Part shown: positions 11,012-13,688 of the stretch, in pieces
Layout of the letters: each line of letters starts with the position of its first letter
Position numbering within the stretch: the first letter of the stretch is position 1
Assembly: GCA_013289875.1 (NCBI GenBank)
Contig: JABCZC010000025.1
Coordinates: forward strand, 1-64,000
Origin: Acidobacteriota bacterium
GTDB lineage: Bacteria > Acidobacteriota > Terriglobia > Terriglobales > Acidobacteriaceae
Reading direction: 5' to 3'
Length of the DNA stretch: 64,000 nucleotides
Notes under the pieces: model-generated
The model's database searches: none
Told to the model about the DNA's origin: nothing
Seen by the model: only the letters and a program-made list of their open reading frames with translations
Made by a program: the position numbers and the translations under genes

Positions 11012-11854
11012 ATGAAGAGGATGCGAGGGATTTTCCAGGCTCGAGCCGGATACGTGATTCTTTCGTCCTGCGCGGCAGCATTGATCGCCGCCTGCTCGAT
11101 TTTCGCCGGACGTACCCAGGCTGCCGACAGCCCGGCGGCGAAGCAACCTGTTCTCGTTGAGCTATTTACGTCGGAGGGCTGCTCGAGCTGCCCTCCCGCG
11201 GATGCCCTTCTTGAGCTCCTCGATCACGAACAGCCTGTTCCCGGCGCCCGGGTCGTTGTGCTAAGCGAGCACGTGGATTACTGGGATCATGAGGGCTGGC
11301 GCGATCCCTTTTCTTCTCCTGAGATAACGGCGCGGCAGGACTTCTACGTCTCCCGCTTTTCGCAAGACAGTGCTTACACCCCCGAAGCTGTGATCGATGG
11401 AGCTCGCGGTCTCACCGGAAATGATCGCAGAGGCCTGGTCAGTGCTATTCAGGAAGCGGCGCAGAAGCCGAAGATTGAAATTGCAATTGCCAACGCTACC
11501 GTCAATGGCAAGTCTGTAGAGGCTACTGTGACGGCTGGGACACATCCTCGAACCGACCTGTACGCAGTACTCGCAGATGACCACGATGAGTCGAGCGTCT
11601 CACGGGGAGAAAACTCGGGAAAGCATCTCGAACACGTGGCTGTGGTGCGAGTGATCGAGAAGATAGGCTCTCTGAACGACGAGCTCAGCAAGCAGATCCA
11701 CGTCGCTCTACCCGGCCACGCGCAAGCAAAGATGCGGCTCGTGGTCTTCGCTCAAGAGCGCGGAACCGGCCACATACTGGGCGTAGCAGAAGCCACCTTT
11801 AGCGACACCGGAAGCCTCCCTCAGCAACAGGCGCAGTCTTCCCGCCCGCAATAG
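11012..11854 (+). CDS. Secreted DUF1223 thioredoxin-like protein
   Basis: About 280 residues. A hydrophobic N-terminal segment (about 12-30) serves as signal peptide or anchor. The DUF1223 domain starts with VELFTSEGCSSCPPADALL, a thioredoxin-like fold with a CSSC redox-type motif; its function is uncharacterised. The start is uncertain: ATG 11012 places the signal segment at the N-terminus, while ATG 10916 would add 32 residues. Its 3' end overlaps the sulfur-carrier gene on the other strand by 34 bp. Confidence 0.82.
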   Translation: MKRMRGIFQARAGYVILSSCAAALIAACSIFAGRTQAADSPAAKQPVLVELFTSEGCSSCPPADALLELLDHEQPVPGARVVVLSEHVDYWDHEGWRDPFSSPEITARQDFYVSRFSQDSAYTPEAVIDGARGLTGNDRRGLVSAIQEAAQKPKIEIAIANATVNGKSVEATVTAGTHPRTDLYAVLADDHDESSVSRGENSGKHLEHVAVVRVIEKIGSLNDELSKQIHVALPGHAQAKMRLVVFAQERGTGHILGVAEATFSDTGSLPQQQAQSSRPQ

Positions 11855-12144
11855 GAGCAACAGCTACAGCACCCGCCGGCAATTGACGGGATTACCAGCA
11901 CTTCATCGCCGTCCTTGAATGCGTACTTGTCATTACCGAGGAATCGGATGTCTTCCTCGTTGACGTAGAAATTGATGAAGCGACGCACCTGGCCATGCTC
12001 GTCGCGAAGATGGGTTTTGAGAGCCGGGAAAGTCGTTTCGATCTCCGTAATCAGTTCGGGCAGGTTGCCCGCGTTCGACTGGACCTCGCGGGCTCCGTTG
12101 GTGTGCTTGTGGAATGCGTTGGGCAGCAGAACTCTAACTGACAC
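11821..12144 (-). CDS. ThiS/MoaD-like sulfur carrier with Cys-rich tail after the GG
   Basis: A 107-residue beta-grasp protein. Residues 1-91 match the MoaD/ThiS/CysO group and end in the di-glycine (G90-G91, SIAGG) that is normally the C-terminus and is adenylated and turned into a thiocarboxylate. Here 16 more residues follow, CCSCCSYCGREDCACC, with eight cysteines. The GTG at 12144 has GGAGG seven bases upstream and lies inside the last codons of the threonine-synthase-like gene (11-bp overlap), so the two are probably translationally coupled. The carrier would need processing before activation. Alternatively, the tail is a recent stop-codon loss into the convergent neighbour, or a metal-binding tail. 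Confidence 0.85.
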   Translation of the reverse strand: MSVRVLLPNAFHKHTNGAREVQSNAGNLPELITEIETTFPALKTHLRDEHGQVRRFINFYVNEEDIRFLGNDKYAFKDGDEVLVIPSIAGGCCSCCSYCGREDCACC

Positions 12145-13405
12145 GGACGCCTCCAAAGACGAGCTCTTGCTCTTCATTTTGTTCCTCCAGATAGGTTTCG
12201 AAATCGGACAGCCTCGGACGTACAGGCGCTTCGAGCTCATAAGCTCCTGCCAGTGCGTCGGTGGTTTTGAGACCGTTGCCGGTGATGCAGGTAACGGTAA
12301 GCTCGTCTTGACGGATGCGTCCGTGAGCATACAGGCGTGCAGTGACAGCGGTCGTCACTCCTCCCGCGGTTTCGGTGAAGATGCCTTCAGTCTCGGCCAG
12401 TTCCTGGATCGCGGACACAATCTCGACGTCCGATACGTCTTCGGCCCAGCCGCCGCTCTCACGGATGCAGCGCGTTGCATAGACGCCGTCCGCTGGGTTG
12501 CCAATTGCCAGCGAGCGGGCGATGGTAGACGGCCGCTGCGGCTCGATGTGATCGGCGCCGGTCTTTACGGCAGTCGCGATGGGCGAGCAGCCCGTGGCCT
12601 GCGCGCCGAAGAAGCGCACTTCTTTTTCCTCGACCAGGCCGAGCGCGATCAGTTCCCTGAAGGCTTTGCGGATCTTGGTGATGAGTGAGCCGCCGGCCAT
12701 AGGCACTACAACGTTGTCGGGTAATCTCCAGCCGAGTTGCTCTGCAATCTCGAAGCCGACAGTCTTCGAGCCTTCCGCGTAGTAGGGACGCAGATTCACA
12801 TTGACGAAGCCCCAGTGGTAGCGGTCTGCGATCTGCGAACAGAGGCGGTTGACATGATCGTAGTTGCCGTCGATACGGACCAGTTTTGCGCCATAGACCT
12901 GCGTGTTGAGAATCTTGGCTGGTTCAAGATCAGAAGGCACCAGAATGTAGCTCTTGAGTCCGAGCCGTGCAGCCTGCGCTGCGACCGCGTTCGCGAGGTT
13001 GCCGGTAGACGAGCACCCGACGGTGTCAAAGCCGAAGATCTGCGCATTGGCGAGCGCAACCGATACCACGCGATCCTTGAAGCTCAGCGTGGGCAGACAA
13101 ACGGCGTCGTTCTTGATGTAGAGATTGCTGGCGCCGATGCGCTCGGCAAGCCGAGGGGCACGCAAGAGAGGCGTCCACCCCGCTGGAGTTGGCGCGACGT
13201 AATCGTCGGGCACCGGCAGCAAGGCCTGGTAACGCCACATGCTGCTTGGGCCTTTGGCGATCGCCTCGCGGGTAAACGTGTTACGGGCAGCCTCAAGATC
13301 GCACTGGACCTCGAGCGGAGAGAAACATTCGTCACAGATGGAAAGCGGCGCGTTGTCATACCGCTTGCCACATTCCCGACATCGCAATTCATAGGCGTGC
13401 GCCAT
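12134..13405 (-). CDS. thrC: Threonine-synthase-family PLP enzyme
   Basis: A 423-residue fold-type II PLP enzyme. An N-terminal zinc-ribbon-like segment (C9, C12, C24, C27) precedes the catalytic domain; the PLP lysine is K110 in LSFKDR, and phosphate-binding Gly/Ser motifs (SSTGNLANA, VPMAGGS) are present. Classical ThrC turns O-phosphohomoserine into threonine. Two features argue for a sulfur-linked role: a SAM-I riboswitch upstream and an overlapping sulfur-carrier gene. The related CysM of Mycobacterium uses a carrier thiocarboxylate. ATG 13405 with GAGGG upstream is preferred to a start at 13528. The exact reaction cannot be settled from sequence alone. Confidence 0.85.
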   Translation of the reverse strand: MAHAYELRCRECGKRYDNAPLSICDECFSPLEVQCDLEAARNTFTREAIAKGPSSMWRYQALLPVPDDYVAPTPAGWTPLLRAPRLAERIGASNLYIKNDAVCLPTLSFKDRVVSVALANAQIFGFDTVGCSSTGNLANAVAAQAARLGLKSYILVPSDLEPAKILNTQVYGAKLVRIDGNYDHVNRLCSQIADRYHWGFVNVNLRPYYAEGSKTVGFEIAEQLGWRLPDNVVVPMAGGSLITKIRKAFRELIALGLVEEKEVRFFGAQATGCSPIATAVKTGADHIEPQRPSTIARSLAIGNPADGVYATRCIRESGGWAEDVSDVEIVSAIQELAETEGIFTETAGGVTTAVTARLYAHGRIRQDELTVTCITGNGLKTTDALAGAYELEAPVRPRLSDFETYLEEQNEEQELVFGGVRVS

Positions 13406-13418
13406 AAAGCCCTCGATT

Positions 13419-13436
13419 CCTGAAACCAAATTCAGG
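13419..13436 (-). promoter_or_regulatory. Short hairpin 13 nt before the thrC-like start
   Basis: On the minus strand, CCTGAA and TTCAGG form a perfect 6-bp stem with a 6-base loop just upstream of the GAGGG ribosome-binding site. It may be part of the riboswitch expression platform acting on translation, since I see no intrinsic terminator between aptamer and gene. The remaining leader (13437-13567) has no clear feature. Confidence 0.35.
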
Positions 13437-13567
13437 AGCAGCGGCGGGACCCATCGAGGATTTCCCCTATGGGTACAAATGCACGGGCACGCGTGACGAA
13501 CTCTGCCAAACTTCTGGTACTGCGGCACTACTGGGATTCAGCGAAGTGCGATACAACATGCACCCCG

Positions 13568-13688
13568 AATCTCATGTTCCCCGATCCGTTTCCGGATTCA
13601 GGAGAGAGTTGACACCGATGTCTTAGATTGCCTAAGCCGGTTGTCGTGGCGTCACAGGGCCCGTCCCTCAGCCACTCTTCATGAAATT
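13568..13688 (-). promoter_or_regulatory. SAM-I (S-box) riboswitch aptamer
   Basis: On the minus strand a complete S-box aptamer is visible. P1 pairs AATTTCATG (5' end at 13688) with CATGAGATT (3' end at 13568). Then come GAAGAG, P2 GTGGC/GCCAC enclosing the kink-turn strand CTGAGGGAC and GGGCCC, the conserved GACAACCGG, a P3 stem around TTAG/CTAA, the CGGTGTCAACTC strand, and a P4 stem ATCCG-GAAA-CGGAT followed by GGGGAACATGAG. This matches the SAM-I consensus along its length. It lies about 160 nt upstream of the thrC-like gene on the same strand and should reduce expression when SAM is plentiful. Confidence 0.9.

What the first reader, a model, noticed from the sequence alone, without database searches (positions are those of the whole stretch)
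11821..13688. Possible carrier-dependent sulfur amino acid pathway: riboswitch + PLP enzyme + thiocarboxylate carrier
The PLP enzyme and the carrier overlap by 11 bp and sit under one SAM riboswitch. In Mycobacterium, CysM (same PLP fold type) accepts sulfur from CysO-thiocarboxylate; in Wolinella, HcyS donates sulfur for homocysteine. A threonine-synthase-type enzyme that uses carrier-bound sulfide with O-phosphohomoserine would be a previously undescribed variant. The hypothesis combines visible overlap and control with family knowledge.
Basis: inference. Interest (0 to 1): 0.8.

Follow-up and report, generated by a model that had tools for sequence, protein, structure and literature searches.

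The report
SAM-controlled carrier-fed homocysteine synthase pair
A bacterium of the Acidobacteria group appears to make homocysteine, the precursor of methionine, with a threonine-synthase look-alike fed sulfur by a small carrier protein under a SAM-sensing RNA switch; this route was reported in Streptomyces in 2024, and here the carrier wears an unusual conserved cysteine-rich tail.

Summary
Observation confirmed: on the minus strand a SAM-I riboswitch (13687-13569) precedes a threonine-synthase-like PLP enzyme (13405-12134), which overlaps a ThiS/MoaD-fold carrier (12144-11821) by 11 bp. Enzyme then carrier, same strand, holds in 39 of 39 loci compared (38 of the window's family), and a carrier follows within 208 bp in 70 of the 80 best relatives, which span several phyla. 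The enzyme clade is distinct from ordinary ThrC; 42 of 43 pair genomes carry a second ThrC. In the family the pair and MetX hardly co-occur (1 of 45), and 20 of 41 pair genomes show no MetY/MetB/MetC-type enzyme.

It is not undescribed: it matches MetM/MetO of Streptomyces albulus (Hasebe et al. 2024, seen only as cited in PMC12172450). Against it: the related Microcystis enzyme made threonine in vitro.

New is the carrier's end. After the GG expected to carry sulfur, the window's clade has a tail with the motif CCSYCGxExCxC, under purifying selection. Other carriers add a few residues or a NIL domain. Removal by a JAMM protease is inferred; none was found in this 90%-complete genome.

The parts
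13569..13687 (-). SAM-I (S-box) riboswitch aptamer, RF00162
   Evidence: 71.3 bits, E 1.1e-14; also upstream of the pair in 20 of 22 further family loci
13410..13414 (-). GAGGG, likely ribosome-binding site of the enzyme gene; could be masked by a leader hairpin (suggestion only)
   Evidence: read from the sequence; hairpin over it seen in L053 and L140 but the favoured fold in the window differs
12134..13405 (-). threonine-synthase-like PLP enzyme, 423 aa, MetM-type; zinc-ribbon Cys 9, 12, 24, 27 and PLP lysine 110 (SFKDR; role recalled)
11821..12144 (-). ThiS/MoaD-fold sulfur carrier, 107 aa, MetO/CysO-like, GTG start, overlaps the enzyme gene by 11 bp
11872..11877 (-). codons of Gly90-Gly91, the expected thiocarboxylate site
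   Evidence: both Gly invariant in the 38 carriers aligned
11824..11871 (-). 16-residue Cys-rich tail after GG (linker CCS, then CCSYCGREDCAC, then C)
   Evidence: low confidence in the model, pLDDT about 52

Best explanation
This is a MetM/MetO-type homocysteine synthase unit. When SAM is low the riboswitch lets the operon be expressed (established for the riboswitch family, inferred here). The carrier is cut after GG to remove its tail (inferred; a JAMM protease is the likely agent), then adenylated and thiocarboxylated by a MoeZ/ThiF-type E1 (inferred). The ThrC-like PLP enzyme takes O-phosphohomoserine from the threonine branch, eliminates phosphate, and the carrier thiocarboxylate attacks the gamma carbon instead of water attacking the beta carbon as in ordinary ThrC (inferred from ThrC chemistry and the reported MetM reaction). 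Homocysteine is released directly or by proteolysis of a carrier adduct, as Mec+ does for CysO-cysteine. Shown here: gene unit, riboswitch, folds, wide conservation, gene partners, near exclusion of the MetX route in the family. Every catalytic step is inferred.
For: Order and strand conserved in 39 of 39 loci and carrier found downstream in 73 of 80 best relatives, 70 within 208 bp. SAM-I riboswitch directly upstream in 20 of 22 family loci, and in 7 of 18, 5 of 17 and 10 of 15 further loci. Pair and MetX in the 45 family genomes: both 1, pair only 18, MetX only 14, neither 12, Fisher p 0.00096. 20 of 41 pair genomes have no Cys_Met_Meta-type hit better than 1e-9. A second ThrC over cut-off in 42 of 43 pair genomes; in the window's genome one lies beside homoserine kinase. 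Flanks with thrB or ordinary thrC, MoeZ and JAMM in other lineages. An actinobacterial relative (Nonomuraea, 53% identical) has the same layout riboswitch-enzyme-carrier, as reported for S. albulus metM/metO.
Against: The Microcystis enzyme of this kind (51.6% identical to MetM by its authors) made threonine and deaminated it in vitro; with sulfide it gave only an unidentified peak, and methionine did not rise in cells; the carrier was not supplied there as far as the passages show. Pair against MetY alone is weak: 4 both, 15, 13, 13, p 0.065 (0.041 in the 36 better genomes). 12 of 45 family genomes have neither pair nor MetX nor MetY over cut-off. No JAMM, MoeZ or second CysO-like carrier found in the window's genome. 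Seven of 80 relatives have no carrier found next to them, two of them at contig ends.
Confidence: 0.85

Rival explanations
1. The PLP enzyme is a second threonine synthase (or synthase/deaminase, as reported for Microcystis) and the carrier next to it serves something else, such as molybdopterin or tRNA thiolation.
For: thrC equivalog score over cut-off; ThrC fold; in vitro activities of the Microcystis relative.
Against: A second ThrC in 42 of 43 pair genomes; SAM, not threonine, control; conserved carrier partner; 28 columns fixed differently from ordinary ThrC; near exclusion with MetX.
Confidence: 0.07
2. The pair makes cysteine from O-phosphoserine, as CysM with CysO in Mycobacterium.
For: Carrier closest to CysO; same broad PLP fold family; CysO/CysM/Mec+/MoeZ mechanism known (PMC3227635 passages).
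Against: Enzyme is ThrC-like, and cysteine synthases come far down the structure list; clade relatives have a separate CysM-JAMM-CysO-MoeZ cluster; SAM riboswitch; thrB and thrC neighbours; the window's genome has two genes over the cysK cut-off.
Confidence: 0.03
3. The enzyme makes homocysteine from O-phosphohomoserine with free sulfide, and the carrier is an accessory only.
For: Five of 80 relatives with room have no carrier found next to them, among them Pseudanabaena biceps.
Against: Carrier adjacency in 73 of 80 and 39 of 39; MoeZ or JAMM in many flanks; a carrier elsewhere in those five genomes was not searched for.
Confidence: 0.04
4. In the window's clade the sulfur is carried as persulfide or metal-bound on the Cys-rich tail, not as a thiocarboxylate on GG.
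For: The tail is conserved and Cys-rich; no JAMM found in this genome.
Against: GG stays invariant; close relatives without the tail keep the same enzyme and end at GG (L098, L162); JAMM is over cut-off in four tailed relatives (G329, G325, G309, G324) and found in a fifth (G139).
Confidence: 0.04

Closest known systems
MetM/MetO of Streptomyces albulus (Hasebe et al. 2024, Appl Environ Microbiol 90:e01247-24; not held, seen as cited in PMC12172450)
   Same: ThrC-like enzyme plus adjacent sulfur carrier, SAM riboswitch, O-phosphohomoserine to homocysteine (as reported there); a Nonomuraea unit of the same layout is 53% identical in the enzyme
   Different: Acidobacteriota; carrier with a Cys-rich tail after GG; 11-bp gene overlap; S. 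albulus sequences not compared directly
CysM/CysO/Mec+/MoeZ of Mycobacterium tuberculosis
   Same: Carrier fold and closest carrier relatives; likely activation by MoeZ and release by a JAMM protease
   Different: Enzyme is ThrC-like, not CysM-like; probable substrate phosphohomoserine; that route is encoded separately in clade relatives
HcyS/HcyD with MetY in Wolinella succinogenes (recalled; Krishnamoorthy and Begley 2011 not held)
   Same: Carrier thiocarboxylate as sulfur donor for homocysteine; carrier needs trimming after GG (recalled)
   Different: Partner there is MetY, another PLP fold; here a ThrC-type enzyme, and MetY is below cut-off in 34 of 41 pair genomes
Threonine synthase ThrC
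   Same: Fold and PLP lysine motif, probable substrate
   Different: About 30-38% identity to the ThrC-like rows; 28 columns fixed differently; carrier partner and SAM control

Membership tests
MetM/MetO homocysteine synthase | ThrC-like enzyme in a clade apart from ordinary ThrC, together with an actinobacterial relative of metM-metO layout | tested here: met
   One side of a branch, SH-aLRT 100, 44 rows against 26, Nonomuraea row inside; rows were chosen by identity to the window's enzyme, so partly by construction
MetM/MetO homocysteine synthase | sulfur carrier gene directly downstream | tested here: met
   11-bp overlap; 39 of 39 loci
MetM/MetO homocysteine synthase | SAM riboswitch upstream (reported for S. 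albulus) | tested here: met
MetM/MetO homocysteine synthase | carrier usable as thiocarboxylate donor: GG end or a means to expose it | tested here: inconclusive
   GG present but followed by 16 residues; JAMM found in five tailed relatives, not in this genome
MetM/MetO homocysteine synthase | sequence similarity to S. albulus MetM and MetO themselves | not tested
   those sequences were not reached with the tools left
MetM/MetO homocysteine synthase | homocysteine from O-phosphohomoserine and thiocarboxylated carrier | not testable with these tools
   needs an assay
Ordinary threonine synthase (ThrC) | residues fixed in ordinary ThrC | tested here: not met
   28 columns fixed differently between 118 MetM-type and 35 ordinary rows (some rows near copies), e.g. 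Arg to Tyr209 and Asn to Arg206
Ordinary threonine synthase (ThrC) | threonine formation | not testable with these tools
   needs an assay; positive for the Microcystis relative
CysM/CysO cysteine synthase | CysM-type enzyme | tested here: not met
   no cysM or cysK model among the 25 families shown for the window enzyme; fold nearest ThrC
MetY/HcyS route | MetY-type partner enzyme | tested here: not met
   no MetY over cut-off in the window's genome; partner is ThrC-like

The most novel reading that the evidence does not exclude
The Cys-rich tail is a working part, not merely a cap: a small metal- or persulfide-binding module joined through GG that keeps the carrier inactive, reports zinc or redox state, or hands sulfur on during maturation, so that methionine synthesis in this clade is gated at the carrier as well as at the riboswitch. 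The NIL-domain carriers of other lineages would be a second solution of the same kind.
Probability: 0.25. Interest if true: 0.7.

Novelty: new variant of a known kind. Interest (0 to 1): 0.5.

Why it matters
[quoted passage not shown] Genes now annotated as a second threonine synthase would be methionine genes. If the tail works, sulfur carriers have a control point at their C-terminus.

Tried and rejected
A fused enzyme-carrier reading of the long open frames (about 485 aa) was rejected: those read (L047, L049, L131) are carrier plus MoeZ/rhodanese ORFs, with a CysM-like gene beside them. Cysteine synthesis by the pair was set aside (see rivals). A leader hairpin masking the ribosome-binding site appears in the folds of L053 and L140 but is not the favoured fold in the window, and the leader's fold energy is only weakly unusual (z -1.97): left as a suggestion.

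Choices made after seeing the lists: MetX called at over 300 bits (gap from 322 to 156 bits; none of the 45 family genomes, and none of the 14 controls, reaches the curated 500-bit cut-off); pair called at carrier E below 1e-25 (gap from 6.6e-29 to 2.6e-19). The 45 genomes have different genus codes but are not independent; no species tree was made. The clade test is partly by construction, and L007 and L271 are long branches in it. Of 23 pair loci of the family, 22 were fetched with surroundings (G163 left out). Completeness of the genomes is not told. Structure models confirmed folds and said nothing on the tail.
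Full report
What is there. The minus strand of 13687-11821 holds, in order, a SAM-I riboswitch, a threonine-synthase-like PLP enzyme and a beta-grasp sulfur carrier that overlaps the enzyme gene by 11 bp when read from its GTG. The enzyme's nearest solved relatives are threonine synthases, 1.1e-49 at best, and its model (mean pLDDT 87.9) matches threonine synthases first. The carrier's nearest are CysO proteins by sequence and by fold.

Is the unit real? A survey of 297 genomes of the phylum found carrier-like matches in 142, a mixture of this carrier and of carriers that belong to a CysM-MoeZ route. 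I fetched 22 of the 23 strong matches of the window's family with surroundings, and one from another family of the phylum, and 15 more family loci came from a search of 45 genomes of the family, listed under 45 different genus codes. With the window that makes 39 loci. In 39 of 39 the enzyme gene comes first and the carrier follows on the same strand, with gaps from -11 to +127 bases (the enzyme of L056 is cut by its contig). Of 22 family loci searched beside the window, 20 have the SAM-I riboswitch upstream; L056 is cut by its contig and L070 has none at gathering score.

How wide is it? Their titles name Acidobacteriota, Nitrospirota, Cyanobacteriota, Mariprofundus, Rokubacteria, Omnitrophota, Kiritimatiellae, Myxococcales and others. 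A carrier was found downstream in 73 of 80, within 208 bp in 70 (one of these, L155, with a broken frame); of the seven without, two contigs end there. SAM-I riboswitches stand directly upstream in 7 of 18, 5 of 17 and 10 of 15 (Nonomuraea included) loci. None was found in the cyanobacterial, nitrospiral and rokubacterial loci searched, some of which have little upstream sequence; PMC12172450 likewise says that Microcystis has none. Flanks of other lineages show MoeZ, JAMM, CysM, ordinary thrC or thrB; the layouts enzyme-carrier-thrC (Nitrospirota) and enzyme-carrier-thrB (some Acidobacteriota) place the pair in the O-phosphohomoserine branch.

It is not the housekeeping threonine synthase. 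The window's genome has three ThrC-like genes among nine PALP matches; one of the other two stands beside homoserine kinase. Of 43 pair-bearing genomes, 42 have at least two ThrC over cut-off; the remaining one has a second, partial match at a contig edge. In a tree of 70 rows the MetM-type enzymes are one side of a branch with SH-aLRT 100, partly by construction. Between 118 MetM-type and 35 ordinary rows (some near copies), 28 columns are fixed differently, among them the loop NSxNPxR, which becomes NxxRxxY. That this Arg binds the substrate phosphate is recalled, not tested.

What does it replace? In the 45 family genomes the pair is in 19, a strong MetX in 15, both in one, neither in 12; Fisher p 0.00096, and 0.0013 in the 36 better genomes. 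MetY over cut-off is in 17 of 45 and in 4 of the 19 pair genomes; that contrast alone is weak (p 0.065; 0.041 in the 36). None of the 12 without pair and MetX has MetY over cut-off, so their route is unexplained. In 41 pair-bearing genomes, 39 of them reached through the loci, MetY is over cut-off in 7; in 20 no match of this family is better than E 1e-9, while the other 21 have one below 1e-30. The 20 include Pseudanabaena biceps PCC 7429, whose enzyme has no carrier within the 4 kb downstream that I hold, and Calothrix elsteri. The window's own genome has a single full-length Cys_Met_Meta enzyme, closest to cystathionine gamma-lyase but below that model's cut-off, beside a cysteine-synthase-like gene. 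This would suit the reverse direction, homocysteine to cysteine (inference).

Prior knowledge. PMC12172450 (outline, abstract, passages) states that Hasebe et al. 2024 identified MetM, a homocysteine synthase in Streptomyces with homologues in cyanobacteria, that it converts O-phosphohomoserine to homocysteine, that metM has a SAM riboswitch, and that metO is a sulfur carrier gene. The Hasebe paper is not held; that thiocarboxylated MetO is the donor in vitro is recalled from its abstract. A Nonomuraea record has the same layout: riboswitch, enzyme 53% identical to the window's, carrier 24 bases on and ending at GG. Iyer et al. 2006 (PMC1779556, passages) list carrier-E1-JAB operons with cysteine synthase; the passages found name none with threonine synthase. 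My other literature searches (listings) showed no earlier report of the pairing, in an open-licence library only. The same mSystems paper gives the main evidence against: the Microcystis enzyme made threonine and deaminated it in vitro, and gave only an unidentified peak with sulfide.

The carrier's end. CysO ends at GG. Of the 39 carriers, 5 end at GG, 2 have one more residue, 21 have two, and 11 have three or more. In the window's clade the addition is a tail: linkers of 3 to 28 residues, then CCSYCGxExCxC. It is in 9 loci with 8 different tails; a DNA pattern for it occurs in 12 of the 271 loci then held, which are these 9 places and repeat fetches of two of them. Nine of twelve motif positions are invariant, eight of those with synonymous codon changes, so the protein sequence is under selection. 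Near relatives L098 and L162 end at GG and L145 at GG plus two, so the tail was probably gained within this clade (inference). Two deltaproteobacterial carriers continue after GG into a NIL domain, and two more look alike by length and sequence. GG is invariant in the 38 carriers aligned. I infer that the tail is removed before thiocarboxylation. A JAMM protease is over cut-off in four tailed relatives (G329, G325, G309, G324) and present in G139, but not found in the window's genome, where no MoeZ-type E1 and no second CysO-like carrier was found either. In the relatives these lie in one cluster, so one missing stretch of a 90%-complete assembly could explain it, or the cluster is lost. A MoeB/ThiF-type protein is present (C29) and might serve.

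Verdict. The function is well supported by comparison, not by assay; the pathway has been known since 2024; the tailed carrier is the new part.

Noticed in passing
L171:5275-5787 and L204:5288-5800 (also L178 and L194 by length and sequence): MetO-like carrier continuing after GG into a NIL domain (PF02597 then PF09383).
   Followed up: partly
L136:1177-3069 (window's genome, contig C52): Multiubiquitin-domain protein, a DUF6791-ThiF protein and a DUF6527 protein in a row: a ubiquitin-like operon unrelated to this pair.
   Followed up: partly
L203 (Pseudanabaena biceps PCC 7429): MetM-type enzyme with no carrier found in the 4 kb downstream, in a genome with no MetY-like match better than 1e-9.
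   Followed up: no
12 family genomes: G023, G210, G297, G302, G304, G312, G315, G317, G327, G330, G331, G332: Neither the pair nor a strong MetX nor MetY over cut-off; how these make homocysteine is unexplained.
   Followed up: no
L131:9385-10887 (G329): CysO-like carrier fused to a MoeZ-type E1 plus rhodanese in one ORF after CysM and JAMM genes.
   Followed up: partly
L172, L183, L193, L196: MetM-type enzyme followed by homoserine kinase without a carrier found nearby.
   Followed up: no
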